From Plazaster borealis (taxonomy: Eukaryota > Echinodermata > Asteroidea > Forcipulatida > Labidiasteridae), in assembly GCA_021014325.1 (NCBI GenBank), contig CM037469.1:15860201-15924200 (forward strand): a stretch of DNA of 64,000 nt, read 5' to 3'. Shown here one piece after another: positions 2,241 to 25,605 of this stretch (its first letter is position 1; every line of letters starts with the position of its first letter). The position numbers and the translations under genes were made by a program. The notes under the pieces were generated by a model that had not been told where the DNA came from, ran no database searches, and was given only the letters and a program-made list of their open reading frames with translations.

Positions 2241-2401
2241 ATGTGGCCCAAGTTACTGGACATGAGTAAAGATGAGTGCAAGAGATTGTTGAGACGAACC
2301 GAACTTGAGGCGTACGCTGGGATTGTCAGTGCGTTCCGTGCCCAGGGTGATTTGACGAAAGACAAGAAACATCTTCTCAACGAACTATCTTCGACACTCA
2401 G
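2241..2401 (+). CDS. EMSY: EMSY exon 1: ENT domain, first part
   Basis: Encodes residues 1-53, beginning MWPKLLDMSKDEC and running through the ENT helices (LEAYAGIVSAFRAQGDLTK). The ATG at 2241 aligns with the N-terminus of vertebrate EMSY, so I use it as the start, although an AG immediately precedes it and an upstream exon could add residues. The donor is gtaaaa at 2402; the exon ends in phase 2. Confidence 0.85.
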
Positions 2402-5400
2402 GTAAAAAATTGGCAAGCAAATTTGTGGGGCAATAGCCTATCCCATCCTTTTTTAATAGCTTGATTTGGCATAATATGAAATAAAGAATAACAAAATCAT
2501 CACAATCACTATAAAATGGAGGGTTTGTGTGATTTTGATGTTTTTAATTGTTTTGTTAAACCCATTTAACTCCAAGATGACATTTTCTGTAAGCATTTAA
2601 AAAAAACTAAAATGCAGTGTAGATTTTAGTAAATATTTGAAGAATTGTTCTTGTTTTTGCCAACATGAATAACCTTTCTTCAAACATCTTTTCCAATATA
2701 TAGATTTTGAAAAAATAACAGCTGACAAATCTTGGAGCCAAATGTGACTGAAAAAAATCATTGAAAAGGCCGTTTTTTATTATTAAAAAAAAAAAAAAAA
2801 ATGGGGTCGGGGGTTTTTGTAGGGTCGGGCGGGACGTTCAACAATTTTTTTTTATGTGGCCTAAGGGTTTAAACTTAAAACAAGTGTTCTGTCTCGTCAT
2901 TGTCATTCTGCACACGGTGACAAAAGTGAATTATTGCAATAATTTGTCACATTTCAATGTCTTTACAGTTACAAAAACTATAAAAAATTCTTCCTTAACA
3001 GTGTTCCGCTGGCCAAATGCTCGTTAAAACACCCAAGGACCAGTGGAAATTATCTGCATGTAGTCCAGCTGGCTAATTCAGTGTTGAAACATTCCCCCTA
3101 ATTAATATGGACTGTGACAAAACTTACGGACCAGTGAACTGACAAGCTAACTGGTCCTGCTGGCTAGTCACTGAAAAAGTTAGGGCAACCCCTGTAAACT
3201 ATTTTTTGCATCTATACCGTAGGTCCTGTTGGTTGGTGATCTGTTTGCAATCAGCTAATTGTATTTTCTGATTTAGATACTTACTTGGCAGCTGTTTTTG
3301 AATACTTCTGAGCTCTGAGTCACTGAAAAAGTTAAGGGCCAAACCCTGTCAGATAGTTCTGTGCAGATTTTGCTGTCATACACAACCTGTGCAGTTGAGT
3401 AGGAGGGTTAATGGAAAGAAGGAGATTGTGAAATGTGTTGCTTGTTTTGAAATTGTTGTGTCAGTGCGAAAACTTTCTCATAAAATAGCACTTATGTTAC
3501 GCATGAGTTTGAAATTGTCAAAACGTTGTATCTCGCTTAAAAAATAGTCCAGATGTCCACACAAAATAAGTATGCGCCGAGATATGACATTTGTGCACAG
3601 AACATTTTCGTGCGAGATATGACGATTTTGCAAAACTCAAGATACAATGTTTTTGTACTGACGCAACGGAATATCTTCATCTGCAATAAATATTGTTTGT
3701 ATCTTACCTCTTGTAGCATATCTACAGAACGTCATCGTGCCGAGGTCAGACGAGCCGTAAACGATGAGAAACTATCCACAGTTGCGGAGAGGTATGACAA
3801 GTTAATTGATGTAAACCCAGGCCAATAATGTCTGACACTTTGGTATCCATATTCTTCTGTTGTACAGCATTTTATGTTTACCAGACCAAATGTAAATTGC
3901 ACACTCGGTTTGTTTTTAAAAGTTGTTTAAATGTTTGTTTTACACACAACCCATTGAGTAGGAGGGTTAATTAAAAGAAGGAGATTGTGAAAAAAATGAA
4001 AAACAGCGATGGTGGGCAGTCAAAACTCTCATGAAAATACAACAGGCTAGGAGCAAGCATAGCAACAAAGCCCAGAAATGTGCTTGGGCAACTCTGAACT
4101 CTTATACGTGAAGCCGGGGACTATGTACATGTATGGCCTATAGACCCATTGCATACGACGTCACACTCTCAAAAAGGAGGCAGATCATTGGACGATAGCT
4201 GTTCTCTGTGCGTAAAAACGTGCGCGTGACCTCGGCGTATCTGTAGCGTTTCGCATTATGCAAGGAGGATCTATTGATTTCTATAGACCACTGGAACGCG
4301 CCTCCGAACAATCGTTCGGATGCGCGTCATTTTGGGTGTCAAAACTCTCTTTTGTGCATGTTTGTATACGATTTTGACACCCAAAATGACACCCAGGATA
4401 GGCGCATGTGAGTACGCTGCGCGTTGTGCAATGGGTCTATCAAAAAAATGGTGCACAGCATCCTTAAAACACTGAGCCCCCTCCTCTGAAGGCTGCCCGA
4501 TGACACCAGGCGGAAGCCTATTCCAGATGTTTGCAGCGACTGGTAGAAAACTCCTGTCATAATCCAGTAGGGTCCGGGCTCTTCTAATGCCAGGAGGGAG
4601 GGGATACTGTAGGGAGTACTGCATATGATGTCACAAGTCGAAACAGCGCCCTCACTGAGGTCAGTGAAGACCTATCATTGGCTTAGAATTGGCGGATGCG
4701 CGTGCACGTTTCCATTGTTTGACCTCAGCGATGGCGGCCAATGCGAGGGGGTCTAATGAAAGCATTGAGTTACTGTAAACTACTATAAATAACTGTCAAA
4801 TTTTGACTTTGATTGAAACGTGATTCCTTCATCCTACCCAGATTGAGTGGTTTGAATAACTCTGCGGAGTGGGCCATTGAAGGACGTCGACTGATCCCCT
4901 TGATGCCAAGGCTTGTACCACAGACAGTGTTTTCATTAACGGCTAACCAGGCAGCCAATGCAGCATTCAGTCACAATCTCACACTCCCTTTGCCCTCGGA
5001 AACAGCTAGAAAAGAAAGTAAGAAATGTTTCCTTTTTTTTCCCTATGGGCAATTCCAAGCAAACAAGGACATGGCCCCAAAAAATCAAATTCATTTCTGA
5101 ACTTCCTTTTTATTTTTAAGTTATTGCTAATAGATGTAACGATCAGGTTATAAACTTTTTTAGTCAAATCTTTATCGTTTTCTATGAAATATTTTATGTT
5201 TCTTCCTTGTTATGTTTGGCTTAAAAAATGTACTTATTTATATGCATTTTCATTTGTTTGCATTTTTTCTATGAAAAAGCAGTGGTCAATAAACTATTTA
5301 TGCAATTTAGTAGTATGACTGTATACCTTAATAATAAATAAATAGACAATCTGCTGATGACTTTTTTTGAAGACTTGTAGGTGCACAGCTTTGGACGAAG

Positions 5401-8400
5401 AGGAGTATGAAATGCGAGTGACAGAAAGATCTCTTTTTTATTATTTTTTTAAACTGGTAGTGATTATATTTTTGACAGTTGAGAATTTCCTTCTCCTACC
5501 AATGCCAATTATAAAAACAAAAAATATTAAAACAAAATACCCAGCACATTATAATACAGAGCCCTTGAAATTTGAAATGCGAGTGACGTGAAATGCGAGT
5601 GACAAATGAAATGTGACTGACAATACTGCTTTCCATTATAAGAATGCATACAAAGATAGTACTGAGGGAAAAAATGTACATATGTGTACAAGTTAAATTT
5701 TCTCAAAATTAAACAAAGTTGTTTAATTTTGAGAAAATTTAACTTAAATCAGGGTTCTCCCTATGCACAAGCTAGCGTATCGGGCTGATACGCGCGATTT
5801 GCGTGCCGATACAAGTATCAACACATCATGTGACCCAACATATACATGAAATAACAAACCTGTAAAAGTTTTAGCTCAATCGGTCATCGAAGTCACAAGA
5901 AAATAGTGAGGTGCTTGTTTTCACTGTTTTCAAACACTGGGTTTTTGAATCGCAAGATCAAAACTAATTGTTATATGCATTTCTCAAAAACTTGCACTCC
6001 AAGCAAAAATATTTCAAGGGAAGTTTTCCACCATGACCATCTTTATACCATTTAAGTTGTATGCAAGTCTGTGAACATTTGTATTTTCACTCTTACCAAT
6101 GTTACACACACCCTTTAAAATGACTGTTTGTATTATTTTTGTTAAGTACCGATTGGAAATGAGAATAGCAGTGTTGGAATGAAGCCTCAACATCAACCCC
6201 CGAGCCCTTCATCCAATGTCGTAGTTTTACCCTGTGGCATCTCCATTCCAGTGAAAGGTACACAGGCTTTAAACTAGTCTTGGTTACAAGACGTTCCAAT
6301 TTTGTAGTCACAAAAACCTAATTGCTATCACCCCAAGAACCACTCGCCACCAGAGGGCGCTATCATTCCGGTAACTGCTATCACACTACAAAGGAGCAGC
6401 GGTTCATGATTTGATACAGTTACAGGAATGATAGCGCCCTCTAGTGGCGAGTGGTTCGTGGGGGTGATAGCGGTTTAGATAGCAATTAGGTTTTCGTGAC
6501 TACACAACTGGATCGTCTTGGAACCAAGACTAGCTTTAAACCCTTACCTCCTCTTATTATGTATTAAAGGTAGGGTCATAGATTAGTTTTTGTCAACGTA
6601 ATGCTGATTTATAGGCAAAGTTATAAAGAAATATGCAATAAAAGTCCCATGTATGAAAGATTCAGCTGAATACAGTGTTTACTTGCTGAGAAAACAGCAA
6701 AAAACTTTCACTGTTTTTTGCACACAAACGTCAAATTCATCCATGTTTAGTGAGGTGACAGCGGGTACCAACCGCATCTCTGGCTGCAGCATTCATAAAA
6801 GGACACAAACAGTTGGAAATCTGAGAAACGATTCATGCATGAATCGTTTCTCAGTTATATTAATGGTAATAATGGTAGTGAACATTACCTTTTGCAGACC
6901 TGATACTTCATTATTGTTGAGGCAAGGCAGTTTTAGTAAAGTGCACCTGTATAACTTGCAGCTATATAAGGGAAATTGAAATATCTGCTGGAACATTTTA
7001 AGGGGCACCAAGGCTATGACCAGGAGCATGGAGGCAGATGCTTCTGTGAAGCATCAGGCACAGATTTTACTTAAAAGTTCTTAAATTAAGGAACAAGTCC
7101 ACAATATGTTCATCTTGTGACGTTGTAGAGTTTCTATAAGTCCTCTCAGGCCTTTCGCTTAAGCTTTTTGTAATGTAGCCCACGGGGCTATCCCCCAGGA
7201 AGTTTTGGTTGCTCAGATTTTAAATTGTCATCAATGTATCTTCTGATGTATTAATCAGGCCTGTGAGATCTCTGCTTTTTTTTGTTGCTTTTTTTCCCGT
7301 TTTTTTTTTTTCTTTTTTTTTTTCACTTTTTGGCCTTATATATGCTTGGCAACAGTAATGTACAACTACAATAGTGTGGAATAAGCCTAGTTTCTGGATC
7401 AATGGGGTGCCCCAATTCGACCAGCGTAAATGCGTGACGTGCGCTCACTTGATGTTCCACGATCATTCTTACATCTTGTAGTGTTTCAGCTCTTTTTTTA
7501 AGGGTCCACTCACAGTCCTGATTAATGGTAGTGATCACAACCTGTAACCAATTTAATGTTCAAATGAAGTTTACATTCACTCTCTAAAAAATAAATCAAC
7601 TCATTTTAAATATTTATAACTCACATCTGAAAAGCAAGAAACATGAGCATTTTAAACAAGTAGGTTGCACAGTTTTTAGTATCCCACGAGGCAAGTTGAG
7701 AAGTGGTGTTTACTAGCCCGTCGCAGTTTTTCCTAGACACTGGGCTAGTGTTAAGGGTGAGCCCTGCCTCTACAATGTAATGCCCTGTAGGTTAAAAAGC
7801 TTATCCGCAAGAAAGACCCAGGTTGGCCAACTTTGTCTCAGTGCTTTATATTTTTCTGAAATCTTGTAGGTGCCTCAGATATCGATGTCGAAACTCCTCC
7901 GGTGAAGAGAACTCGCTATGACTCGTCAAGCGGACCATCATCAAAGGAGCCACTGCCCTCTCCCCACGGCCAAACCTTGGCCTCGTCGAGTCTTCTCCCC
8001 CCACCGAGTCCCAAATCATCGAGTGGACACATCATCACGACCAGTCGGTCGCTGAGCCTACCCGCCACCAAACAACAGCACCTGGGATTCAACGCGAGTA
8101 AACAACACGTTGGTCTGAATTTATCGAGTAACAAGTCGCTGATTGGGTTGAGTATGACGCCGTCGGGCAAACCTTCGATGTCGTCGATGAGTAGTGTCAC
8201 CAAGGCTGGAATGAGTAGTGCACAGTCACCTGTTAAATATACTTACACCAAGGCATCAAGTGGACAATCAGCAAGTAGTAATGCAGCTCAGAAGGTAAGG
8301 AGTAAGGAAACCAACTGCCTGGAAATTTATTGAAATCTGACAGAATTAATGAGACCAGTAAGCAAGAATGTAAAAATGCAAAGCAAAAAAGTAGGATTTC

Positions 8401-11400
8401 AAAAGGGCAATAGACTGTGCAAGTCTTGCGGGTATCGAAAATGAGAAAACAACTTGAATGAAAACTATAATCTTATATGAAATCAAATTTTTCTTTTTAA
8501 ATTCTATTTATAAAAATTTCTTAAGCAAAAAAAAAACATAGCAATTTGTTTTGAATACATCTTCTATTTATATAATAATACAAATATTTTGTTCAAATTA
8601 ACGTTGAAACAAAATTTAAAACCCTGTTTGCCAATCACGCCTAATTTGTGTGACCATCACATGAATGACAGTTGTGGAAAATTCTTAATTTTCTACAAGT
8701 AACCGAAAATGGAAGTCAAGTCTTTTTCTCAGGTTTTCTTTGTTGATTTTTTTGAAAAAATTTACGTTTATATAATTCATGGCTAAATGTTACTTTTTCC
8801 AACAATACGGGATAATTTTGATAGCCATAAACTAAAAGTACATGTTAAAATAAAGTACTTGAAGAAACAGAATCATACACACGTAAGACTCACTATGGTT
8901 CGGACCAGCTTAGTCCCAGAAGTTCAAATAGGCAGGAGACTTGCAAATTCTGTAACAAAATATTATGTTTGATTTCAGGTAATCTTGGTTTCAAGCAGCT
9001 CCACATCCTTCACCCCGTCCATCCTACAACGGTCGCACAGTGTACCCTCATCAAAGTCACCCGTCATCAAAGCAGGCACCAAACAGTCCGTCATACTGAC
9101 CAGTATGTCCGGTCAGTCATTGTCCCGACAACCCGACATGAACATGAAACCAGGAGGGGCACAACCGGCTGTAACTCAAAGAGGGCGACAGCAGTCTGCC
9201 GCCAGCAGGTCAAATGTCAGACAACACACCCCGTTGTCTCGACAGCAGCTGGAGGGTAAAACGTGTCAGATTTCCAGCAGCCGTCAGTTTCCTAACCCTG
9301 AGGTCATGCCGGGGACGATCCCAGTCATCAGTACAGGGAGGAAACCATCAGGGAATACTGGAGCGATACCATCCATCAAAAGCACTGTCATCACTGCAAG
9401 GACTACCAGTAAGTACAATTTAACCCTCTCACTGTCTGACCATTCAATATCGTCCACTGTGGTTTTGAATAGTAGATAAAATATGCCAGCCTGCTATATG
9501 ATATCATGTAGTGAGTGCATCTACACAGTACACAATCAACCTTTCTACTGTCTGTAATATCATCTACTGCATTTGAATGATAGATATACTATAATAATAC
9601 AAAGCTATGCCAGTCAGCTATATGAAATTATGTGGTGAAATGAATGTATGTACACAAAGTACACAGTCAACCCTCCTACTGTCTGACCGTTCAATATCAT
9701 CCACTGTGGTTTTGAATAATAAATAAACTATGCCAGTCAGCTGTATGAAATCATGTGGTGAACGTTAATGTGTAAACAAAGTACACAGTCAACCCTCCTG
9801 CTGTCTGACCATTCAATATCATCCATTGTGGATTGGATTGATAAATAAACTATGCCACCCTGCAGTTTGGTATCACGTGGTGAATGCGTACACAGTAGAC
9901 ACATATAAACAACTAGTTCTGTGCACATGCCACCATACACAGCCCGTAGAGATGAATGGTTTCGAACGGTTGGTCATCTCACTGGGAAATAGTTACAGAG
10001 AGTAGGAGGGACAAGACATATAAATCTTCCACTCAATGTGATAGTAAGAATAATAATAATAATAATGATAATAGAGAGAGATTTATAAAGCGCAAACAGT
10101 CGTTGAATACAGCAAAAATTGATTAAACAACATAAATTAAATTAAAAGCAACGATAATTAAACAATTTTACAACAAATTACGTCTGGACCAGCCAAATAC
10201 ACAGTATTAGTTAAAAAAATAATAAAAAAAATAAAAAAAATGAACTAGTTAAAAATAGTTGTAGAAAATGAATAACAGATACAAACCTTTCAATAAGTTG
10301 CAATGTTACAAAAATACTGTTTGAAAAGATGAGTCTTAAAGGCATCGTACACGTTTGGTAATTGTCAAAGACCAGTGTTCTCACTTGGTGTATCCCAACA
10401 TATGCATAAAATAACAAGCCTGTGAAAATTTGGGCTCAATTGGTCGTCGAAGTTGCAAGAAAATGATGAAAGAAAAAACACCCTTGTTGTACAAATTTGT
10501 GTGCTTTCAGATAGGAATAAAAACTTCTTGCAAGAAATTTTTATTATTTTAGTGAGAAATTACCTCTTTCTCAAAAACTACGTTACTTCAGAGGGAGTCG
10601 TTTCCTACAATGTTTTATACTATCAACTGCTCTCTGTTGCTTGTTACCAAGTAAGTTTTTATGCTAATATTTGTTTTGAGTCATTACCAAACGTGTACGA
10701 TACCTTTAAGGCGAGACTTGAACAACTCGATGGTCGACGACTCCCTGATGGTCGGTGGCAGGCTGTTCCAAAGTGTTTGCGTTTATACTATAATTACTTT
10801 GTTTTTCAATTCTTGTATACACCCAGCATCATTGATAAGCTCTCAGATGGCATCCTATGTATCTACAAACATGGCCGGGAAACCCAGAGTGAGAGCTGTT
10901 GGTAAACAGAAACTCATGAAGCAGATGGCCCAACATCCTGATGTGACGACCCAGATGGCATCTGGGATGAACGCCATTAATAAGAAACAACAAATCAAAC
11001 CAGAGACAGGTAACCTTTTTTTTCAAATACATTGATATTTGGTTCATGCGGGTTAGACACCTCAAAATAATATATAGACCCCTTGCACAACGCGCAGCGT
11101 ACTGACAAGCGCCTACCCTGGGTGTCATTTTGTGTGTCAAAATCGTATACAAATATGCACAAAAGAGAGTTGACACCCAAAATGACGCGCATTATTCGGT
11201 GGTGCGTTCTGCGTTGTGTAAGGGGGCTATAAAAATCAATAGACCGCCCTTGCATAACGCTAAACGCTACAGGTACGCTGAGGTCACGCGCACGTTTTTA
11301 CGCACAGAGAACAGCTATTGTCCAATGATCTGCCTCCTTTTTGAGAGTTTGGCGTCATATGCAATGGGTCTATACACTGTGAACCAGCCAGTGTCTCAAT

Positions 11401-14400: not shown

Positions 14401-17400
14401 AAAATCCCTTTAAAAAGGAACATTACAACTTTGGTTTATAATCATTAAACAATTGTTAAATTTTCAAAAAACCTTATTTTCAGGTGCACAACATCATGTC
14501 AGGCTCCCTCTTGCAGCGGCCCAGGATCGCCATGGTAACTGGGGTAACTTCAACAACGACTGCGTCTAATTTGTCAGCCTCGAGTATTCGCTTTCCGACA
14601 TTACAGAGTACCGGTAATATTACCATGACAACGACGGTGAAATCGCCGAAACGAATGAGAAGCCCAATAACAATAAGGACAAGTGGCAATCAGTCAAATC
14701 AGGTAGGAATTATTTGTGAATTATTTTAAAGAAAAGCGGAAAAGCTAGTTTTTTTTAATGATTAAAACCTTTAAGTGAGGGAGTAACTCCAGGAATTACA
14801 CAAATGCGGGAAGGTTCCACTAGTAACTGGCACCTCAGTTAGCCATAAAGTTTAATTGGCAGGGGAAGAGGATTTGGAAACCTCAGAACATAGCACAGGC
14901 TGTCAGCAAGACATCTGGAAGCCTGCTGCAAAGAACAGATGGCTCCACTTTACCAGAGGGTTCAGATCTGGGTAGGTCTGTATGTCTGTACAATGAGGTT
15001 GTTGGTTCAAATCCCACTCTATTCGGTGTTTCTTTGTTCAACCCAAATTATCTTAGAGGTAAAGCGGTGATGAAACAATAGCACAGGTTTGTACGTGCGG
15101 CACACAGTTGGCCAATGAACAACCACCTTTTGACCTCCAGGCGAGGGCGCCCTATTCAGTTGATGTCAAGTGCTTAAGGTCCTTTTGACATCCATAATAA
15201 CGGTCATTCTCCTCTTTTGCTTGGTATAGAGACGACAAGTGGCATCAATATCTCCAAACGCTTTGCAGAGCAGTAAAGCTCCGGGCTCCTTGGAGGACGT
15301 ACCTATACACAAAGAAGGTAGAACAAGTTTTATATTTACTGATTTTCTGAGTACTCCTGACGATGACTAGAGCAAGCTGGTCCAAACGTTGAGACCTATT
15401 TAGACTCACTCCGCGGCAGTGTAGTAATTAACAAGAAGTCCCCCCGATCCACATAGCGAAAGTAGTAGTCCCGCCCAGGTAGTAGTTAATGAGAAGGACA
15501 GTTCTTTTCAAAACTGAGAAGTCTCCCGAATTCCGAATATTCTACTCTGCGGCAGTAGAATAAAAAATGTTTGAAAAGCAAGACAAGTTCTCAAAGAACA
15601 AAATCTACCTAGCAAGTAGATATACACATGGTGTTACCGCAAACCAAATATATTGTGATGTTTTACTTGGTTTTTAATAGTTTGAAAACTTAATGTTCAG
15701 ACTTGAGCAGAGGCTAACCTGTTAACCAATTGCCAGTGGATAAAGGTCCCAGCTGTTGTCATTTTGAATAGACTTCTTGTTACTTATCTTTCGTTGTGTT
15801 TGTAGAGTTTGCAGGAAGTGTCAAGCGAGGGCTCCACCCCAATAGTGAATGGATTGATTACGATGGAGCGCCACCTGATTCGGCCTCCTCGGCCATCAAA
15901 GCTCTGCTGGAGTTCAGATCACACCCCGGTAAGACAATCACCAGGATATGGTTTGGCAGCAGCTATGGCTACTGCTAAGTGAATGTTTGGATATACTTTA
16001 ATGTTGGACATTGACAGAACATTGTCATGGCCTGTTCTGGCTGAGCGGTCAAGCGCACTGGGCTTAAAGCTCTGGTGTTTCTGATCAGCAGAGTGTGGGT
16101 TCAAGTCCTGGTCTTGACACTTGTGTCCTTAAGCAATACACTTAACCATTTTTGCTTCGTCCTTCGCTCTCGCCATACGTCTTGTGTGTTGTGTAATGCA
16201 CATATTAATAACCCAGTTACACTTATCGCTAATAGAAGAGGTTAGCCACGGTGTTTCTGGCAGTGGCTGCTGGATGTGCCTCAGCACCTTGTAAACCCTT
16301 ATATAAAGGTGCTACGTAAATCAGTTTCATAATTAAAAGAATCCAAACTATGTCTTAAAACGTGTGTTTTTTTTGTTCAAGCCCCTTGAGTACCTTTTTG
16401 CTATATTAAAAGACTATGTAAATATTTAGATGACTTGTTTTCGTTACCTACAGATGTCGGCAGACAGACGATTGATCTTACCCAAATGGCATCTTCCACC
16501 ACTTCCCCATCGATCACCAGAGTCTCCTACTCCCCGTCTCCGTCTGCTCCTCAGTCATCAAACCTTCCTTCAAGAATCTCACAGGCTGCACCCGTGATGC
16601 CAAGAGTGTCTCAATATGAACTATCCGCTGCCGGAGGAGGAGTGCAGATGGAAGGGGCGTCGCAGTTGCTGTCAAACATGCAGAGTAAACTGAAGAGAGC
16701 TTTGACTTCAGAAAGATCAGGTATTGGTTGAGAAAAAATGTTGATCAATCCTTAGTTCTGTTAGGTACTTTTAGCTTAGGTATTTGGAACCTGCCCATGC
16801 TCTTTAGGAAAGGTTTGACGATTTCTGATTTCCAGGATAATGCTAACAGCATGGAACCTATTGTTTGTAAGAATTATATTATATTACTATCTGTTTGCAT
16901 TTATAATCTTTGTTTTTGTGTCAAATTTATTTCTTTAGGAAAGTCTGCCCCATCTGCGTCCTTTCTCCAAACAGCCACTATGGAAGTTGAGAAAGCTCTT
17001 CAGGAACAGAATAAAGCTCTTTTAGCCAAGCAGATCGAGTCCCGCAGCCCACAACCTGGCGAAAGAACTGTCGGTCCAGCTGGTCTCTCCGATGTCACCA
17101 TCCACAAGAAGGTCCAACAAGAACGGTCAGGGGACGGCGGGCAGGACATGACAGTGGAAGAGCAAGGTGTGGTTACTGAGAGGATCAATCTGTCATCGGA
17201 GGATGTGTCGTCATTTGTCGATCAGTTCGAACAGTTCCTTGAGAGTGAGGGTCTAGAAGATGCAATTGAAGGAGTGGTCGGTGGCCATGGTGGTCGGGGA
17301 AAGACTCGAATTGATGGTCAGAAGTCCTCCGACTCCACTGGCCCTCAGAAGGCTGCAGATTCCGCTCAGGTTACAGCTGGACAAGTTTCAGAATTATCAA

Positions 17401-20400
17401 GTGAAAAAACAGAAGGTATTCGTGTGTCAGAGAAAGCAGTCTCTCAGATTGTTGTACCCCAACTTGGCGGACCGTCTTGGAGAAGTCAGACAGTGAGTAC
17501 AAACAACTCTCAAACTTTCTTTCTTGGGAGTCGAGGCAGTTTAAGGGGGCTAAATTCATAGGGTTTGAGGGACTGGGGAAGTTGACTGCCTCGAGGAAGC
17601 CAGGCTTTGCTTCACTACACACAGGGTTTTGTACGTGCACAAGTGCCCAGATTTAAAAAAAGAATTTCCAAAAGATTATTTTGCCTGGTGACTTCACATC
17701 TCTTTTTATGATTGACAGAACTTTGAACCGATCTTGTCCTCTGGTCAGAAGATGGCTGCCAGCGTCGTGATGGAATCCGGCTCCGTGGACATCTCCCAGA
17801 TGAAGCTTGAAGACTTTACGAGTCAGAGACTTCAAGAGGAAGAGGAAGACGAGGAGAAACAACTAACGAGTCCAGATACCAGCCCCGCCAAAATACAAGG
17901 TAGGGATGAGAAATTAGACGGGTACTATTTGTGACTGGCATTTTGCTAATTTCTGCTCAGCAGGAAATTGTTGAGCACTGTTTTCTACTTAAAGGCAGGG
18001 GATACTTTTGGTAATTGTCAATCCTCACTTGATGTTTCCCAACATATGCATAAAATAACAAACCTGTGAAAATTTGGGCTCCATTGGCCATCAAAGTTCC
18101 AAGAAAGAAATGGAAGAAAAAAACACTCTTGTATAGAATTTAGGCTTTCAGATGCTTGAGAAAGGCTTCATGCCTGAAGCCTCTCAGATTCAATTTTTGG
18201 GGGTGAAAATTACCTCTTTCTCTAAAGCATCATTACTTCAAAGGGGGTCGTTTCTAACAATGTTTTATAATATCAACAGCTCTCCAGTGCTCTTTATCAA
18301 GTCGGTTTTTATGGTCATTCATTTTTGGAGTAATTACCTAAGGTATACCCTCCCTCTTAGCAACTCTATGAAGTTTGGCCCAGGTAGGGACTGAAAACCC
18401 AAGTCTCAGAACCGTGATTCGAACGGTGGTCACAGAGGTGAAATGCAGCGAAGAAACCTCCGAGCCAACCTGAATATCTCATTCTCTTGATAGATGGTGG
18501 TTACACAGTCACTACTGGTTCTGGATCTGAGGAGCGGGGTACCAATGACTCTCTTAGCGTCAGGATTAGTAGCCGTAAGCGGAAGGCACCTGCTCCGATA
18601 GACGACGAGCCTGGACCCACCAGTATGTCCAGTTGGGCAAGAGCTGCTTTCAAGTAAGGCGTTGGACTAAGAATTTCTTTAAGGTGTTTGTGCAATGTTT
18701 GATTGATTATTTTCCACTGAAATGTTTGACTGATTACTGTCCACTGAAATGTTTGACTATTGACCACGATTGATTATTGACTACTGAAATGTTTGATTGA
18801 TTATTGACCACTGAAATGTTTGATTGACTATTGATCACTGAAATGCTTGATAGATTATTGACCACTGAAATGTTTGATTGACTATTGACCACTGAATTGT
18901 TGGATTGATTTTTGACCACTGGAATGTTTCATTGATTATTGACCACTGAAATGTTTGATTATTTACCACGATTGATTATTGACTACTGAAATGTTTGATA
19001 GATTATTGACCACTGAAATGTTTGATTGACTATTGACCACTGAATTGTTGGATTGAGTTTTGACCACTCGAATGCTTCATTGATTATTGACCACTGAAAT
19101 GCTTGATTGATTGACTATTAAAATATTTGATTGATTATTTTCCACTGAAATGTTTGATTGATTTTGGTTCATTGAAATGTTTGATCAACTATCTTCCATT
19201 GAAATGTTTGATTCATTATTGTCCACTGAACTGTTTGATTATTGTCCATTGAAATGTTTGATTGATTTAATTGTCCTCGGAAATGTTTGATTATTGTCCA
19301 TTGAAATGTTTGATTGATTACTGTCCACTGAAATTGTTTATTATTGATCGCTGAAATGTTGTTTGATTGAATATTGTCCACTGAAATATTTGATTGATTA
19401 TTGTTCACTGGAATGTTTGATTGACTGTTTTCCACTGAAATGTTTGATTGAATATTATCCATTGCAATGTTTGATCAATTATTTTCCACTGAAATACTTG
19501 AAATAAATAACAATACTTGAAAGCTTTGAAATGTTTAATTTTCAGATTTTAATTGATTATTAGTTTATTGTTACATGATACTGATACTTTGAAATGCTTA
19601 AAGTTGTTGATTGATTAATAATTCTTATATGATTATTATTTCTTAACTGATTATTAGTTCTTGATCGATTAATAGTTCTTGATCATTAGTTCTTGATTGA
19701 TTATTAGTTCTTTACTGATTATCAGTTCTTGATTGATTATCAGTTTGCTTCAGCGGGTGATGCGATTCCGAGGTGCCAACCGATCTAAGGGAGACTTGAA
19801 TGCTGCCTCATGGTTCACAAGACCGGGTAAGAAATGCAGTCGGATGCATCGTCTGGATATCAAAGTGATCTTTGAGTGATTTTGAAAACGTTATTTATTT
19901 GAAAGTATTTGTTACTTTGGCCAAAGTGATTGCATGTGTTGATTTTTTTAGCCAAGCATTTGAGAATATTATGGCCAGGAGGTGCCATCTCCTGCATGAT
20001 GATCACAAAAAGCATGTGTTCTGGTGTTGCCGAAGAGCCAACATTCTTCATAAAAAAATCATAACTCCTGAATATAAATTCAATGGAAATCAAATGTACA
20101 TGTATGTTTCCAGTACATTTTAAACACAGATTGGCTGACTGTCCATAAACAATTTCCAGAAATTACTCTAAAAAGGCTAATAAGAATGTTTTTTTTATTA
20201 TATTTACTCGCAATAAAAAATGTATTCTCATGGACTCTATAAAGTCTGTTTTATCTTCAAAGTACAAAAATTACTACATCTGAAAGACTAGTTTTTCTTC
20301 ACACTATAATTCACTTAATTATCTTCACAATTTATGAAATACTCACCAACTCGAACACCTTGTTTCTATTGTGACAAAAACCTATGTTTTAGTAGGTGTT

Positions 20401-22256
20401 GAAACCTCTCTGTCTAGTTTTTATTGTTATTCTTCTTGTGTCTCATAGTTGCAGCTGCTGAGGCTCCAGGTTATAATCGAGTTATAAAAATTCCCATGGA
20501 TTTTGGAACGGTCAAGAGGAAACTGGAGGTAATTATATCAAATCTTTATAGAACAACCTTTATCATAGAGCAGCCATCTTGCTTTTTCTCTTGTCCGACT
20601 CAATGGGCCGACTCTAAACATAGGAGTGGGTTTTGGCTCCGGCTTGGGTTCCGTCATGCAGTGTGCATTTTGCACATAATGTGGCAATGAACCAAAGGTT
20701 ATAGCTATGACTAAATCAAAAGAAGGCTTAAGCCAAACCCAGGGCCCAATTACATGGCTCTGCTTACGGTAGGCAAACAATCAGCGCTTACGGAAGCAGG
20801 GAATTCCGCGCTTACGCCAAGCGTATTTCACAGGTTAGCAGGAATTTTTGCTCGTGCGCATATGTACTCGATGTTACTAGGCATTTTTTGCTTACAGCGA
20901 GCCCAGAAATTCGGCGCTTGCACAATAAGCGGAGAATGATGATCGTAAGCGCAGAATTCGGTGGTAAGCAGAGCCATGAAATTGGGCCCTGGTGAACATA
21001 CCTTGTGTCTCTAACTTAAGCACTTTTTGAATGGATTCCTTCAGCCTGTTCCAAATATGACGGCCCTACAGTGAGGTTGCTATTTGGTTTAGATATACCC
21101 AAAAGATGATCATGTTTATTCATAATTGTATATTTTAATATTCTTTTGTACTTTTAATATTTGAATGGAAATATGTGGTAATTATTTGTAATAAGCCTTT
21201 GAATGTGTTTGTATGTAATTTGTGCAATATAAAATAATTATATGTATATTTTTTAGAAAGAGTTATACTCTGTGGGCATTTCTGACCATTGAGGCCATAT
21301 GGGTAAAAGTTATTGTTTGTCTCTGTTGTAATAAAGTGAAATAGTGCAATTTTTTTATTATGGCCACGTTTTGGGGGTTTTTCTTTGTTATTTGTTTTAA
21401 ATCACAAAAACACATTTTTGTTTCAGAGTGGCCAGTATGAAGATTTTTCGGGTTTCCATGCCGACATGATGTTGGTTCATAGTAACTGCATCCAGTACAA
21501 TCCTGCAGGTCACGAGATTCGAAAAGACTGCGAGGAAGTCTTTCAGTTTTATACGACAGAGTACGCCAAACTTACAGAACGTAGAGAAAGGGTATGAAAA
21601 ATACTTGGTTTTCAAAAAAAGAGTGACCTGGTACATTCCAGGGCCTTTCTAGCAGGCGAGATGCTACACTGTTCATAGGTTAAATTTTTACATTTGGTAC
21701 CATCATTACCACATAAGTTATACAAATAACAGCTGAGCAAGTTTTGAGAAGTGCCCGTTTTTCATATTAAAAATTGATACAAATCAGACAATGCAATCTC
21801 CATAAAGTCTAAGATTTTATGTTTTCTCCCATTGAGCTGTGTACAAATCGTGCCTGCAGAAAGTCGAGGCTCTGTGACTCTTTTGTAAACATGTGATGTC
21901 ACAGGTTACATGCTCTATAATATAGTGGACACTCCGTCATGTGGTGGCATGATAGTATATGATCGTTTTATAAACAATATGTTCTTGCTTAAAGTTCTTT
22001 CTTATAATAAGTAATGGTGGCTTTATGAATAGAGTACCTGACCGGGTGTAGGAGTTTTCCTGTCTTTGTAGTTTAATTTTGAGTTGATAAGATTTCTAAA
22101 AGACAGATGGTGTATGGTTTTCCTGTTAAATTTGACACCATGTTTTTCTTCTCCCTTCTTATTCTGCAGCCGTCTCCGAAAAAGTCCAAACCTGAGGATC
22201 TTCAATGCGACAAGGGCAGATCTCCCGCAGTAAGATATCTACCCTTGTCAAAATAA
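2241..22256 (+). CDS. EMSY: EMSY-like ENT-domain chromatin protein with C-terminal bromodomain (whole gene span, 20 coding exons)
   Basis: Proposed CDS: join(2241..2401,3717..3791,4842..5017,7870..8294,8979..9408,10827..11009,11516..11668,12466..12624,13856..13980,14484..14702,15230..15317,15806..15928,16454..16720,16939..17492,17719..17899,18494..18653,19744..19826,20449..20528,21427..21591,22170..22256). The sum is 3894 nt, 1297 residues plus stop, with GT/AG junctions and compatible phases throughout. Residues 1 to about 80 are an ENT domain closely matching human EMSY (WPKLLDMSKDECKRLLRR, then SISTERHRAEVRRAVNDE). A Ser/Thr-rich middle keeps SPVKYTYTK, SAIKALLEF and RQTIDLTQM in the human order. 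Residues about 1152-1265 form a bromodomain (PMDFGTVKRKL; SNCIQYNP, acetyl-lysine Asn about 1239). Human EMSY (about 1320 residues) is known as a BRCA2-binding nuclear repressor linked to Sin3/HDAC complexes and, as far as I know, lacks a bromodomain. The start could lie in an upstream exon. Identity as EMSY is near certain; the exact edges of exons 1, 6, 17 and 20 are less so. Confidence 0.88.
2402..3716 (+). other. EMSY intron 1
   Basis: No coding signal. It contains a dispersed repeat at about 3000-3190 whose sequence (gctggccaaatgc ... gctaactggtcctgctggc) is a single-copy relative of the block that has expanded into the 21-bp satellite at 22.99-24.03 kb. The rest is AT-rich. Confidence 0.5.
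3717..3791 (+). CDS. EMSY: EMSY exon 2: end of ENT domain
   Basis: Encodes S-I-S-T-E-R-H-R-A-E-V-R-R-A-V-N-D-E and following (residues 54-78), nearly identical to human EMSY. The acceptor is ttgtag and the donor gtatga; phases (2 in, 2 out) fit the neighbours. Confidence 0.9.
4141..4439. mobile_element. TA-flanked MITE (TAGACCC family), EMSY intron 2
   Basis: Inverted ends TAGACCCATTGCA at 4141 and TGCAATGGGTCTA at 4439 fit a non-autonomous mariner-like element with TA target. A second, oppositely oriented copy lies at 11075-11372, and diverged relatives lie in intron 1 of all three esterase genes. The interior contains the inverted pair tgggtgtcaaaa / ttttgacaccca. A further related fragment follows at about 4625-4757. 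Confidence 0.65.
4842..5017 (+). CDS. EMSY: EMSY exon 3
   Basis: Encodes residues 79-137, including SAEWAIEGRRLIPLMPRLVP and VFSLTANQAANAAF, which follow the ENT domain in human EMSY in the same order. Acceptor at 4841 (tacccag), donor gtaaga at 5018, exit phase 1. Confidence 0.9.
5690..5745. repeat. Perfect 56-bp palindrome
   Basis: Two 27-base arms are exact reverse complements around a 2-base centre (ag). The arms are AT-rich (begins aagttaaattttctc). No protein coding potential. Confidence 0.9.
6347..6361 (+). promoter_or_regulatory. CTCF-consensus-like site
   Basis: CCACCAGAGGGCGCT fits the known CTCF core CCDSYAGRKGGCRSY at every position. Its occupancy here is unknown. Confidence 0.45.
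6433..6447 (-). promoter_or_regulatory. CTCF-consensus-like site, opposite orientation
   Basis: The reverse complement reads CCACTAGAGGGCGCT, also an exact fit to the CTCF core, facing the site at 6347 inside the same palindromic element. Confidence 0.45.
6821..6854. repeat. Perfect 34-bp palindrome with no loop
   Basis: CTGAGAAACGATTCATG is followed directly by its exact reverse complement. The ctgagaaac word also occurs in nearby MITE families (for example about 14220), so it may be the remnant ends of such an element. Confidence 0.85.
7870..8294 (+). CDS. EMSY: EMSY exon 4: Ser-rich region
   Basis: Encodes residues 138-279. It opens ASDIDVETPPVKRTRYD, a small basic patch comparable to the human KPRKRRR segment and a plausible nuclear localisation signal. 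It ends SPVKYTYTKASSGQS...AAQK, equivalent to human SPVKITFTKPS...TTQK. Ser and Pro dominate between. Phase 1 in, phase 0 out. Confidence 0.87.
8411..8955. mobile_element. Decayed copy of a TIR element (tagactgtgcaag family)
   Basis: The left end tagactgtgcaagtct and right end agacttgcaaattct are degraded inverted repeats. A better-preserved copy lies at 58137-58829 with the same internal order (tgaaatcaaat..., acttgcacagtcta end). It fills most of EMSY intron 4. Confidence 0.6.
8979..9408 (+). CDS. EMSY: EMSY exon 5
   Basis: Encodes residues 280-422. VILVSSSSTSFTPSILQRSH aligns with human VIIVTTSPSSTFVPNILSKSH directly after the exon-4 match, which fixes both the frame and the exon junction. 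The rest is Ser/Gln/Arg-rich with no domain. Donor gtaagt at 9409, phase 1. Confidence 0.87.
9412..9905 (+). repeat. Tandem array, about four copies of a ~120-bp unit
   Basis: Units share the order caaccctcctactgtctgacc, atcatccactgtggttttga, ataaactatgccagtcagc and atcatgtggtgaa. The first copy abuts the exon-5 donor. Non-coding, in EMSY intron 5. Confidence 0.7.
10335..10710. mobile_element. MITE, cttaaaggcatcgtacacg family
   Basis: The left end cttaaaggcatcgtacacgt is mirrored by acgtgtacgatacctttaag at the right end. Related copies are seen at about 17988-18360, 22511-22750, 45909-46239 and, truncated, 62080-62207. Sister families with ends ttaaagggtctgtatac lie at about 14019-14413, 32007-32342 and 47955-48283, and one with ttaaaggaacattacag ends at about 43679-44045. 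All are 330-380 bp and non-coding. Confidence 0.7.
10827..11009 (+). CDS. EMSY: EMSY exon 6
   Basis: Encodes residues 423-483, SLISSQMASYVSTNMAGKPR onward. I chose the acceptor at 10826 (acacccag) because it supplies the two bases needed by the phase-1 donor of exon 5. The nearby AG at 10846 would force a frame with an early stop. Donor gtaacc, phase 1. Confidence 0.7.
11075..11372. mobile_element. TA-flanked MITE (TAGACCC family), second copy
   Basis: Reverse-oriented relative of 4141-4439, with ends TAGACCCCTTGCA and TGCAATGGGTCTA between TA dinucleotides. Lies in EMSY intron 6. Confidence 0.65.
11516..11668 (+). CDS. EMSY: EMSY exon 7
   Basis: Encodes residues 484-534 (LKVVSQSVSVTATSKHQ ... 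SMPVTTIA). Ser/Thr-rich and low in known motifs. Phase 1 in (acceptor gtaag), phase 1 out (gtgaga). Confidence 0.75.
11705..12275 (+). repeat. Minisatellite of ctagctgacct-type units
   Basis: Degenerate tandem repeats built from ctctagctgac, ctctagctaac and ttctatctgac (11-base modules, often paired as about 22 bases) fill EMSY intron 7. Units become more divergent towards the 3' end. Non-coding. Confidence 0.8.
12466..12624 (+). CDS. EMSY: EMSY exon 8
   Basis: Encodes residues 535-587 (NKVVIGTSSAGVVSHHMSSM ... FKAATTT). Acceptor ttctag, donor gtaagg, phase 1 on both sides. Confidence 0.8.
12655..13022 (-). mobile_element. tRNA-derived SINE (reverse orientation)
   Basis: Read on the minus strand, it begins with a tRNA-like head (gtggccgagcggataag, an A-box; ggttcgagtcc, a B-box) and ends near an (att)n tail at 12655-12675. 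The same family is at 16024-16330 (forward) and 57525-57968 (reverse, most complete). The tRNA region is not a foldable functional tRNA gene. Confidence 0.75.
13186..13773. mobile_element. MITE with CAGTGTTGTAG ends and GTACTC-rich interior
   Basis: The left end CAGTGTTGTAGTCAAGTAC and right end TTGAGTTCTACAACACTG are inverted. The CAG... terminus resembles hAT-type non-autonomous elements, but I could not find an 8-bp target duplication. The interior is full of cgagtac/gtactcg words. In EMSY intron 8, its right end lies only about 80 bases before exon 9. Confidence 0.65.
13856..13980 (+). CDS. EMSY: EMSY exon 9
   Basis: Encodes residues 588-629 (VCQTLTSGTQKLTGKTSVV ... KNSP). Acceptor gttcag, donor gtaagt, phase 1 in and 0 out. 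Confidence 0.8.
14484..14702 (+). CDS. EMSY: EMSY exon 10
   Basis: Encodes residues 630-702, VHNIMSGSLLQRPRIAMVTG through TTTVKSPKRMRSPITIR. The basic KRMR cluster is a possible nuclear signal. Acceptor tttcag, donor gtagga, phase 0 on both sides. Confidence 0.82.
14764..15010 (+). repeat. Dispersed repeat, copy 1 (tttaagtgagg family)
   Basis: Shares about 230 bases with 24327-24590 (tttaagtgaggg, aatgcgggaaggttccact, cacaggctgtcagcaagacat, ctgggtaggtct). Its 3' end contains a B-box-like ggttcaaatcc, so it may be another tRNA-related SINE. In EMSY intron 10. Confidence 0.55.
15230..15317 (+). CDS. EMSY: EMSY exon 11
   Basis: Encodes residues 703-731 (RRQVASISPNALQSSKAPGS ...). Short exon supported by acceptor ggtatag, donor gtagaa and phase agreement (0 in, 1 out). 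No homology is visible on its own. Confidence 0.65.
15806..15928 (+). CDS. EMSY: EMSY exon 12
   Basis: Encodes residues 732-772, ending with SASSAIKALLEFRSHP, the counterpart of human SATSTIKALLELQQT. This is one of the most conserved EMSY blocks outside ENT. Phase 1 on both sides. Confidence 0.88.
16024..16330 (+). mobile_element. tRNA-derived SINE (forward copy)
   Basis: Head with ggctgagcggtcaagcgc and B-box gggttcaagtcc, followed by the shared gacacttgtgtccttaagca module and a tail ending tatataaaggtgctacgtaaat. Lies in EMSY intron 12. Confidence 0.7.
16454..16720 (+). CDS. EMSY: EMSY exon 13
   Basis: Encodes residues 773-861. It starts with VGRQTIDLTQMASSTT, matching human RQPTIDLSQMAVPIQ immediately after the SAIKALLEF block, then Ser/Pro-rich sequence. 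Phase 1 on both sides. Confidence 0.88.
16939..17492 (+). CDS. EMSY: EMSY exon 14
   Basis: Longest exon, residues 862-1046. It contains a Glu/Gln-rich helical stretch (MEVEKALQEQNKALLAKQI) and an acidic-hydrophobic segment FVDQFEQFLESEGLEDAI, which looks like a protein-interaction helix. Donor gtgagt, phase 0. Confidence 0.85.
17719..17899 (+). CDS. EMSY: EMSY exon 15: acidic tract
   Basis: Encodes residues 1047-1106, with DFTSQRLQEEEEDEEKQ, an acidic tract of the kind also found near the human EMSY C-terminus. In this gene the frame continues into the bromodomain exons instead of stopping. Donor gtaggg, phase 1. Confidence 0.85.
18494..18653 (+). CDS. EMSY: EMSY exon 16: linker and start of bromodomain
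   Basis: Encodes residues 1107-1159, including a basic ISSRKRKAPAP patch and the bromodomain opening SSWARAAF. There is no ATG near its start and no polyadenylation signal between exon 15 and here, supporting one transcript. Donor gtaagg, phase 2. Confidence 0.8.
18660..19740 (+). repeat. Minisatellite of attgaccactgaaatgtttg units, EMSY intron 16
   Basis: Dozens of degenerate units of about 23-27 bases (attgattattgaccactgaaatgtttg and variants) cover 18670-19500. They are followed by a related ttgattgattattagttc array to 19740, which runs right up to the exon-17 acceptor. Confidence 0.85.
19744..19826 (+). CDS. EMSY: EMSY exon 17: bromodomain
   Basis: Encodes residues 1160-1187, LLQRVMRFRGANRSKGDLNA ... 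FTRP (first helix and ZA-loop entry). The acceptor at 19743 (tatcag) gives the single base needed by exon 16. The AG ten bases further on would create an immediate stop. Confidence 0.75.
20449..20528 (+). CDS. EMSY: EMSY exon 18: bromodomain ZA loop
   Basis: Encodes residues 1188-1214, AAAEAPGYNRVIKIPMDFGT then VKRKLE. The PMDFGTVKRKL motif is the hallmark bromodomain segment before helix A. Phase 1 in, 0 out. Confidence 0.9.
20740..20991. mobile_element. hAT-like MITE with CAGGGCCCAATT ends
   Basis: Inverted ends CAGGGCCCAATTACATGGC and GCCATGAAATTGGGCCCTG continue inward as ctctgcttac / gtaagcagag. The CAGGGCCCAAT terminus is a known hAT MITE style. The flanking 8-mers (gccaaacc / gtgaacat) are not a clear duplication, so the element may be old. 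EMSY intron 18. Confidence 0.65.
21427..21591 (+). CDS. EMSY: EMSY exon 19: bromodomain helices and acetyl-lysine Asn
   Basis: Encodes residues 1215-1269: SGQYEDFSGFHADMMLVHSN then CIQYNPAGHEIRKDCEEVF. It matches the BC-loop pattern of bromodomains (SNCYKYNP in BRD4), so the Asn of QYNP (about 1239) is the expected acetyl-lysine contact. Phase 0 on both sides. Confidence 0.93.
22170..22256 (+). CDS. EMSY: EMSY terminal exon 20
   Basis: After a good acceptor (ttctgcag) it encodes PSPKKSKPEDLQCDKGRSPA and a few more residues to TAA at 22254. A gtaaga within it (22230) could instead act as a donor to an unseen exon, so the very C-terminus is uncertain. An AATAAA follows 127 bases later. Confidence 0.6.
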   Translation, partial: PSPKKSKPEDLQCDKGRSPAVRYLPLSK

Positions 22257-22864: not shown

Positions 22865-24060
22865 CTTTACAGAGGTCTGCTGGCCAAATGCCAGTTAGAA
22901 CACCTGAGGACCAGTCAAAATTCCAGCTGGATAGTTCAGTGTTGAAAATCTTCCCTATTTAATATGAGTTATGGACAAGTGCAAAAGCTGACAGACCAGT
23001 GAAATGAAAAGCTAACTGGTCCTGCTGGCTTGGCCAACTAGTCCTGCTTGCTAGGCTAACTGGTCCTACTGGCTAGGCTAACTGGTCCTGCTTGCTAGGC
23101 TAACTGGTCCTGCTTGCTAGGCTAACTGGTCCTGCTGGCTAGGCTAACTGGTCCTGCTTGCTAGGCTAACTGGTCCTACTGACTAGGCTAACTGGTCCTG
23201 CTGGCTAGGCAGACTGGTCCTGCTGGCTATAGGCTAACTAGTCCTGCTGGCTGGGCTAACTGGTCCTGCTGGCTAGGCAGACTGGTCCTGCTGGCTTGGC
23301 TGATTAGGCTAACTGGTCCTGCTTGATGGGCTAACTGGTCCTGCTTGCTGGGCTAACTTGTTCTGCTGGCTAGGCTCACTAGTCCTTCTGGCTAGGCTAA
23401 CTGGTCCTGCTGGCTAGGCTAACTGGTCCTGCTGGCTAGGCCAACTAGTCCTGCTTGCTAGGCTAACTGGTCCTGCTGGCTAGGCTAACTGGTCCTACTG
23501 GCTAGGCTAACTAGTCCTGCTGGCTAGGCCAACTAGTCCTGCTTGCTAGGCTAACTGGTCCTGCTGGCTAGGCTAACTGGTCCTGCTTGCTAGGCTAACT
23601 GGTCCTGCTTGCTAGGCTAACTGGTCCTGCTGGCTAGGCTAACTGGTCCTGCTTGCTAGGCTAACTGGTCCTACTGGCTAGGCTAACTGGTCCTGCTGGC
23701 TAGGCTAACCGGTCCTACTGGCTAGGCTAACTGGTCCTGCTGGCTAGGCCAACTAGTCCTGCTTGCTAGGCTAACTGGTCCTACTGACTAGGCTAACTGG
23801 TCCTGCTGGCTAGGCAGACTGGTCCTGCTGGCTATAGGCTAACTAGTCCTGCTGGCTGGGCTAACTGGTCCTGCTGGCTAGGCAGACTGGTCCTGCTGGC
23901 TTGGCTGATTAGGCTAACTGGTCCTGCTTGATGGGCTAACTGGTCCTGCTTGCTGGGCTAACTTGTCCTGCTGGCTAGGCTCACTAGTCCTTCTGGCTAG
24001 GCTAACTGGTCCTGCTGGCTAGTCACTGAAAAAGTTAAGGGCAAACCCAGAGACCTACAT
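22865..24060 (+). repeat. 21-bp satellite (ctaactggtcctgctggctagg) with higher-order structure
   Basis: From about 22990 to 24030 the unit gctaactggtcctgctggcta recurs nearly 50 times with a small set of variants (cttgctagg, tactggct, aggcagactgg, ctataggc). Unusual variant strings around 23180-23410 recur in the same order about 605 bases later (23785-24015), so a block of about 29 units has itself been duplicated. The flanks match the single-copy relative in EMSY intron 1 (about 3000-3190). Confidence 0.9.
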
Positions 24061-24812: not shown

Positions 24813-25605
24813 TTAAAGATTTTTCCTGATAAATTTCATGAAATCTTCGTCAGACACAACCCCAGATGGTGAGGTAATTACGCTACTTTGGTTACCAAAC
24901 ATGCCGTGAAAGCCATTCTTGTAGTTTTTCCATGCGACTTTAACGCCTGCCTCTTCAAGACGTTTAGCATAGATGATGCCTTCATCTCGCAGACAATCAT
25001 ACTGAGCCGTTAAGATGTACGCCTCCGGTAGACCTCGAAGATCTTCACGCATAAGAGGGGCAAAGTCCGGATTCCAAAGAACTTGATGTAGCTCCTCGTA
25101 CAACTCCTGGTCACCATCGACCGCTGGTGGCGCTGCATAGCCACTCTGTTTAAACTCAGCAGGGATATAATCATGTGAGAGCATTTTTTTAATCTTCGGC
25201 AACATCTTGGCTTGTTGAGTTGTGTGCTTGTTTTGTGACATTGCAGTTTTAAGATACGGTTTGTTGTTGAGGTAGACTGCCCAGAAATCCGCTATCATCA
25301 CCCTGTCCAGAACTACAGTGGAATAGTCGCCATTCTGCTGGTACGATGGAAGCTGGAAGTCAAACGCCTGCAAGGCAGGGTAAATCAACACCTGTAGTTT
25401 CAGTCTGGGTAACCCCTCATACTTAGGGTCAAAGGTCAACCTCTGAGCGACAGCCGCGGCAAGGTTGCCGCCAGCACTGTCACCCATGATAGCAACTCTA
25501 GCTGGATCGACATTGAACTCTTGAAGGCGTCGTAAGAAAGCAACTGTAGCTGTCGTACAGTCATCTATGGCAGCGGGGAAGGTGTACTTCGGGGCCAATC
25601 GGTAT
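24813..25605 (-). CDS. Esterase copy 1, exon 4 (catalytic core)
   Basis: Begins with YRLAPKYTFPAAIDDC and contains GDSAGGN, the catalytic Asp and His and the stop codon. Phase 2 in. Confidence 0.92.

What the first reader, a model, noticed from the sequence alone, without database searches (positions are those of the whole stretch)
2241..22256. EMSY with a C-terminal bromodomain
ENT-domain EMSY exons and bromodomain exons join through 20 phase-compatible GT/AG junctions into one 1297-residue frame, with no start codon, stop or poly(A) signal between them. Vertebrate EMSY reads no acetyl-lysine mark by itself as far as I know. A built-in bromodomain would let this Sin3/HDAC-linked protein bind acetylated chromatin directly, and raises the question of loss in vertebrates or gain in this lineage.
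Basis: partly seen in the sequence, partly recalled or inferred. Interest (0 to 1): 0.8.

Follow-up and report, generated by a model that had tools for sequence, protein, structure and literature searches.

The report
EMSY with its ancestral bromodomain
A starfish-like animal's EMSY gene ends in a module of the kind that reads acetylated proteins; many other invertebrates have the same layout, while the EMSY of reptiles, birds and mammals stops just short of that module and so looks like a shortened version.

Summary
The join is real. Guided by an Asterias amurensis protein, the window gives 21 exons and 20 GT/AG junctions in one 1334-residue frame, with ENT at one end and a bromodomain at the other. 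It is not a starfish oddity: of 74 database proteins with this bromodomain, 69 also have ENT. They come from echinoderms, hemichordates, amphioxus, brachiopod, annelids, nemertean, molluscs, tick, centipede, Hydra, octocorals and probably a sponge. Fourteen sit on contigs of 3.7-7.1 kb, about mRNA length. The other 81 EMSY proteins listed (80 named amniotes, one unnamed) lack the bromodomain; most end just after a motif that here lies in exon 16, directly before the bromodomain exons. So amniote EMSY is best read as a C-terminal truncation of the ancestral animal protein. The bromodomain has a canonical fold, with the acetyl-lysine Asn and Tyr in every filled column. Five paper searches found no description of this architecture, though databases annotate it. 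Plants and trypanosomes have ENT and bromodomain proteins in one complex. Acetyl binding and SIN3/KDM5 coupling are inferred.

The parts
2241..2401 (+). Exon 1: start codon and first part of the ENT domain
   Evidence: Pfam ENT E=6e-11; 94% identical to A. amurensis
3717..3791 (+). Exon 2: further ENT part (SISTERHRAEVRRAVNDEK)
   Evidence: residues 6-136 match human EMSY 2fmm_E, 206 bits
4842..5017 (+). Exon 3: conserved block after ENT (EGRRLIPLMPRLVPQT...), within the EMSY fragment of PDB entry 2fmm
6147..6257 (+). Exon 4 (VVVLPCGISIPVKG)
   Evidence: found by tblastn with A. amurensis P0001, 95%
7870..8294 (+). Exon 5, low-complexity middle region
8979..9408 (+). Exon 6
10827..11009 (+). 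Exon 7
11516..11668 (+). Exon 8
12466..12624 (+). Exon 9
13856..13980 (+). Exon 10
14484..14702 (+). Exon 11
15230..15317 (+). Exon 12
15806..15928 (+). Exon 13 (NSEWIDYDG...SASSAIKALLEFR); an acceptor at 15815 also keeps the frame
   Evidence: tblastn, 95% to P0001
16454..16720 (+). Exon 14; a shorter donor at 16684 also keeps the frame
16939..17492 (+). Exon 15, with a conserved stretch (SSFVDQFEQFLESEG) modelled as a helix in orthologue P0008
17719..17899 (+). Exon 16: motif VVMES..DISQMKLEDFTSQRL, the last segment shared with amniote EMSY
   Evidence: profile of this segment from 21 invertebrate sequences hits 70 of 81 amniote-type EMSY at over 10 bits, ending 16-19 residues from their C-terminus
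18494..18653 (+). Exon 17: basic RKRKAP motif and start of the bromodomain alpha-Z helix (SSWARAAF)
   Evidence: helix at the homologous site in the model of P0008
18694..19495 (.). 27-bp minisatellite inside intron 17 (not coding)
19744..19826 (+). Exon 18: rest of alpha-Z and ZA loop (LLQRVMRFRGANRSKGDLNAASWFTRP)
   Evidence: 100% identical in A. amurensis and Patiria
20449..20528 (+). Exon 19: ZA loop to alpha-A, with the conserved Tyr (codon 20472-20474); an acceptor at 20455 also keeps the frame
21427..21591 (+). Exon 20: alpha-B and alpha-C, with the acetyl-lysine Asn (codon 21499-21501)
22170..22256 (+). Exon 21: short basic tail (SPKKSK) and stop codon
22383..22388 (+). AATAAA 127 bases after the stop, candidate poly(A) signal
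   Evidence: function not shown

Best explanation
This is the starfish orthologue of EMSY in its ancestral animal form: an N-terminal ENT domain and the block after it, a long mostly disordered middle, a short conserved segment (FTSQRL), a basic patch, and a C-terminal bromodomain. Shown: one continuous frame here, the same two-domain protein across animal phyla, and a canonical bromodomain fold (modelled on a sea urchin orthologue) with the acetyl-lysine Asn and Tyr conserved. Shown for the amniote proteins listed: no bromodomain, and in most a C-terminus in the segment just before it. Inferred: the bromodomain binds acetylated histone tails at active promoters, so an EMSY-containing corepressor (SIN3/HDAC/KDM5 in flies and mammals) is held on acetylated, H3K4-methylated promoters by EMSY itself. 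Also inferred: the vertebrate line lost the last exons, so its EMSY must be brought to chromatin by partners in trans.
Against: No RNA from this species was available. No binding data for any EMSY bromodomain were found. The shelf is W-F, without the proline of the BRD4 WPF motif, so affinity may differ. In flies EMSY knockdown did not change SIN3 on polytene chromosomes; whether fly EMSY has the bromodomain was not tested. Sampling is biased: one search lists the best 120 of 815 hits and a bromodomain raises the score, while look for the bromodomain itself. Invertebrate EMSY without it may lie in the 695 unlisted hits, so how often it was lost is unknown. Fishes, cyclostomes and tunicates were not seen, so the date of the vertebrate loss is open.
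Confidence: 0.82

Rival explanations
1. Two neighbouring genes, EMSY and a separate bromodomain gene, were joined by wishful splicing.
For: Intron 17 is long and mostly a 27-bp minisatellite. In-frame ATGs exist in exons 16-18, and AATAAA occurs in introns 17-19.
Against: The same join is found in 69 database proteins, 14 of them on mRNA-length contigs. The alpha-Z helix is split between exon 17 and exon 18, so a bromodomain gene starting at exon 18 would lack part of its fold. No poly(A) hexamer between exons 16 and 17.
Confidence: 0.02
2. The bromodomain was gained in echinoderms or deuterostomes rather than lost in vertebrates.
For: None found.
Against: Both domains occur in Hydra, two octocorals and a probable sponge protein (P0148, P0146, P0149, P0153) and in brachiopod, annelids, nemertean, molluscs, tick and centipede. 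Thirty named EMSY bromodomains form one group against 7 outgroup bromodomains (99/97 support, with long outgroup branches).
Confidence: 0.02
3. The domain is a bromodomain by fold but not an acetyl-lysine reader (structural role, or another ligand).
For: The WPF shelf proline is missing. Atypical bromodomains are known in general (recalled).
Against: Asn and Tyr are present in every filled column, and W, F, PMD and NC are near-invariant over 75 sequences, as expected for a pocket under selection.
Confidence: 0.13
4. The bromodomain reads an acetylated partner protein or its own complex rather than histones.
For: Not tested; bromodomains can bind acetylated non-histone proteins (recalled).
Against: The plant and trypanosome ENT-bromodomain complexes sit on acetylated chromatin at genes or transcription start regions.
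Confidence: 0.15

Closest known systems
Human/amniote EMSY (BRCA2-interacting transcriptional repressor)
   Same: ENT and the block after it (206 bits to 2fmm); C-terminal FTSQ segment
   Different: Amniote proteins stop after that segment: 0 of 81 listed have the bromodomain
Invertebrate proteins already named EMSY or EMSY-like in NCBI/UniRef (e.g. Patiria miniata P0002, Lingula P0018, Hydra P0148)
   Same: Same two domains, same order, precomputed Pfam PF03735 + PF00439
   Different: None in kind; the window adds one more species, 90% identical to Asterias amurensis
Arabidopsis GTE4-EML1/2 complex (commentary PMC11749275 on Qian et al. 2024; whole text of the commentary)
   Same: An EMSY-like protein and a bromodomain protein act together, co-recognising acetylation and H3K4me3
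   Different: Two proteins bound in trans; GTE4 is a BET protein
T. brucei BDF3-BDF5-HAT2 complex with ENT protein Tb927.11.5230 (PMC8559703, passages)
   Same: ENT protein in one complex with bromodomain proteins at transcription start regions
   Different: Separate proteins, with an acetyltransferase
BET and other human bromodomains (BRD2, BRD4, PBRM1, TAF1)
   Same: Nearest solved sequences; same fold and pocket residues
   Different: Best single solved domain 83 bits (BRD2, 4qeu) with a 10-sequence family profile; with another profile, of 43 members, family proteins reach 114-209 bits and 7 other bromodomain proteins 55-74. No ET domain; distinct SWARAALxLLQRV start

Membership tests
EMSY | N-terminal ENT domain | tested here: met
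   Pfam E=6e-11 in the exon 1 frame; 206 bits to human EMSY 2fmm_E over residues 6-136
EMSY | Conserved block directly after ENT, inside the EMSY fragment of PDB 2fmm | tested here: met
   aligned without gaps to residue 136; HP1-beta binding itself not tested
EMSY | C-terminal FTSQ segment shared with vertebrates | tested here: met
   shuffled amniote sequences reach at most 5.3 bits (810 made, 380 gave any hit)
EMSY | Binding to BRCA2, SIN3B/KDM5A/PHF12/GATAD1 | not testable with these tools
   needs protein biochemistry; SIN3/KDM5 link known for fly and human from papers
Bromodomain | Four-helix fold (alpha-Z, A, B, C) | tested here: met
Bromodomain | Acetyl-lysine Asn and ZA-loop Tyr | tested here: met
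   both present in the window; 74 of 75 and 73 of 75 in the family, the rest gaps
Bromodomain | Binding of acetyl-lysine | not testable with these tools
   needs a peptide-binding assay
BET family | ET domain (PF17035) | tested here: not met
   not among the Pfam matches of the window's C-terminal piece nor in the relatives' precomputed Pfam; present in 6 of 7 outgroups, P0156-P0158 and P0160-P0162
BET family | WPF shelf | tested here: not met
   W and F kept, proline absent against BRD4 BD2

The most novel reading that the evidence does not exclude
The ancestral animal EMSY corepressor sensed acetylated chromatin by itself, joining in one chain a pairing that plants (GTE4-EML) and trypanosomes (BDF-ENT) keep as two proteins.
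Probability: 0.35. Interest if true: 0.75.

Novelty: new variant of a known kind. Interest (0 to 1): 0.6.

Why it matters
EMSY is studied mainly in mammals, as a BRCA2- and SIN3/KDM5-linked protein, and no reader domain of its own is described in the papers I saw. If the animal ancestor carried an acetyl-lysine reader, mammalian EMSY is a truncated form, and results from it miss an ancestral function. It gives direct tests: put the sea urchin or oyster bromodomain on human EMSY, or look for the trans partner that replaced it. It also ties together the animal, plant and trypanosome ENT proteins as one old ENT-plus-bromodomain theme.

Tried and rejected
Two-gene reading and lineage-specific gain: rejected, see rivals. 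The first exon model (19 exons, 1244 aa) was incomplete and replaced; the searches used that shorter model. Weak Pfam hits were taken as chance, all under their cut-offs: Peptidase_A25, BRCA-2_helical and DBR1 in the exon 15 frame (E 0.002-0.08) and Poxvirus_B22R in the C-terminal piece (E 0.09). I looked for a counterpart of the bromodomain among solved structures (best 60 of 398 and of 419 shown): none stood out as an orthologue. Unsolved human bromodomains were not tested. Five paper searches for ENT and bromodomain together gave none describing them in one protein; I read only listings for most of these, and the library lacks most subscription journals, so this is no proof of absence. PMC2993927 was checked by word search only (nothing). 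Insects, tunicates, nematodes, fishes and cyclostomes did not appear among the named listed hits, but only 120 of 815 hits were shown, and depends on shared 5-residue words, so absence there is not shown. Nothing could be learned about other EMSY copies in the window's own genome (genome search did not complete). In the bromodomain tree (30 of 75 family members, chosen because they carry organism names, plus 7 outgroups) relations between phyla are mostly unresolved: 17 of 34 inner branches are open, and the tool warns of long outgroup branches. It shows grouping only. One fold search (pdb) and one second look (pdb_via) were used; no absence of a family is claimed from them.

Full report
Observation. 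I rebuilt the gene from the raw window. Splice sites and frame alone gave 19 exons and 1244 residues. A tblastn search with the closest relative, an Asterias amurensis protein (P0001, 1335 aa), added exons at 6147-6257 and 15806-15928 and a longer exon 14. The final model has 21 exons, 20 GT/AG junctions and 1334 residues; one search left 4 splice choices that keep the frame, and I took the one that fits P0001 best. Every exon has its counterpart in P0001, at 84-100% identity. ENT is found in the exon 1 frame (E=6e-11) and the bromodomain in a joined piece of exons 18-21 (E=2.4e-19). Its statement that no start codon or poly(A) signal lies between is too strong: in-frame ATGs exist in exons 16-18, and AATAAA occurs in exon 15 and introns 17-19, but neither AATAAA nor ATTAAA occurs between exons 16 and 17. 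An AATAAA lies 127 bases after the stop.

Is it a real single gene? The best evidence is outside the window. A whole-length search gave 815 hits, of which the best 120 were listed. The first 39 all have both ENT and bromodomain; the other 81 have ENT only, and 80 of them are named as reptiles, birds or mammals (one, P0052, is unnamed). A bromodomain-only search with the starfish sequence gave 16 hits from 144 candidates. A search with a consensus C-terminal unit gave 70 hits from 194 candidates, of which 63 belong to this family and 7 are other bromodomain proteins. Together that is 74 database proteins with this bromodomain; 69 also have ENT by precomputed Pfam. The five without are P0121 (Diadema, 963 aa), P0129 (774 aa), P0154 and P0155 (Mytilus, with a damaged bromodomain) and P0152 (sponge Corticium, 1336 aa, no ENT at E 0.01). 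These counts are biased towards holders of the bromodomain: it raises the score, and search for it. They show that the two-domain protein is widespread, not how many invertebrates lost it. Fourteen of the 69 lie on contigs of 3.7-7.1 kb, long enough for the whole reading frame and not much more (for example P0126, 1217 aa on 3,737 bases). In the window the same gene covers 20 kb with 20 introns, so these contigs are most likely spliced RNA. That is inference: the source tags (lgn, jgi, ena) are not explained by the tool.

Spread. Named holders of both domains are starfish, sea urchins, sea cucumbers, crinoids, three hemichordates, amphioxus, a brachiopod, two annelids, a nemertean, many molluscs, a tick, a centipede, Hydra and two octocorals. 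A protein with the prefix scpid (P0153) I take to be from the sponge Sycon (recalled). The placing of names in phyla is general knowledge. In a tree of 30 named EMSY bromodomains and 7 others, the 30 stand apart with 99/97 support, but relations between phyla are mostly unresolved and the tool warns of long outgroup branches. The simplest history is one ENT-bromodomain protein in the animal ancestor.

What amniotes have. A profile of the bromodomain unit, built from 43 of the 75 family members (window included), hits all 75 at 114 bits or more, 7 other bromodomain proteins at 55-74 bits, and none of the 81 amniote-type EMSY proteins, with filters off. A profile of the exon 16 segment (VVMES...FTSQRL), built from 21 invertebrate sequences picked by that motif, hits 70 of these 81 at over 10 bits, each time ending 16-19 residues from the C-terminus; 810 shuffled sequences reach at most 5.3 bits (380 gave any hit). 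In 69 of 81 the motif FTSQ(Q/R)LD lies 36-37 residues from the end, counted from its F. The other 12 are 10 shorter proteins ending ...SQVTEY, one with another end (P0058), and one (P0093) whose end is typical but whose motif differs. So amniote EMSY runs to the segment encoded here by exon 16 and lacks what exons 17-21 encode. Since amphioxus has the domain, the loss lies on the vertebrate line. Whether fishes and cyclostomes share it was not seen.

How it most likely works. Fly EMSY is a SIN3 complex subunit that is needed for viability (PMC6242963, passages). Human EMSY has been found with SIN3B, PHF12, MORF4L1, GATAD1 and KDM5A (PMC8143632, passages) and acts with KDM5B (PMC3988886, passages). 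An EMSY that carries its own reader could hold such a complex on acetylated promoters, where deacetylase and H3K4 demethylase act. Two distant lineages support a functional tie between ENT and bromodomain. In Arabidopsis the BET protein GTE4 binds the EMSY-like proteins EML1/2, and the pair reads acetylation and H3K4me3 (commentary PMC11749275, whole text; the research paper itself was not read). In T. brucei BDF3, BDF5 and HAT2 purify with an ENT protein (PMC8559703, passages; PMC9236257, passages), and in Leishmania an ENT protein is enriched near BDF5 (PMC9279504, passages). Against a simple recruitment role: fly EMSY knockdown did not change SIN3 on polytene chromosomes, and I did not test whether fly EMSY has the bromodomain.

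Known or new. NCBI names many of these proteins EMSY-like, and Pfam marks both domains, so the data are public. Five paper searches found no description of the two domains in one protein, within an open-access library only. I class it as a new variant of a known kind: a known gene family whose ancestral form differs from the mammalian one. On checking against the calls I added the sampling bias, the circular part of the profile and the correct best solved score (83, not 73 bits); the odds did not need to change.

Noticed in passing
window 18694-19495: A 27-bp minisatellite fills most of intron 17, between exon 17 and the remaining bromodomain exons; a second repeat (19602-19745) runs up to the acceptor of exon 18.
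   Followed up: partly
window 24816-25610, 34198-35046, 55056-55850 (-): Three very similar Abhydrolase_3 frames on the minus strand, probably copies of an arylacetamide deacetylase-like gene (Pfam; gene name is my guess).
   Followed up: partly
window 36585-37418 and 37660-41817 (+): A retroelement frame of 1386 residues without a stop, holding reverse transcriptase, RNase H and integrase domains, preceded by a gag-like frame without a Pfam hit.
   Followed up: no
window 42287-43036 (+): A frame just after the retroelement with a marginal GDSL-like lipase/acylhydrolase match (E=4e-8, 34.3 bits against a cut-off of 32.9).
   Followed up: no
window 61484-61906 (-): A frame with two C2H2 zinc fingers.
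   Followed up: no
window 23011-24022: A 22-bp tandem array of about 45 copies downstream of the gene.
   Followed up: no
window 16939-17492 (exon 15); P0008 residues 786-803: A short conserved stretch (SSFVDQFEQFLESEG here) is modelled as a helix of moderate confidence in the otherwise disordered middle of the orthologue, perhaps a partner-binding helix.
   Followed up: no
P0152 (sponge Corticium candelabrum): Family bromodomain but no ENT by Pfam at E 0.01: lost, diverged or mis-annotated start.
   Followed up: no
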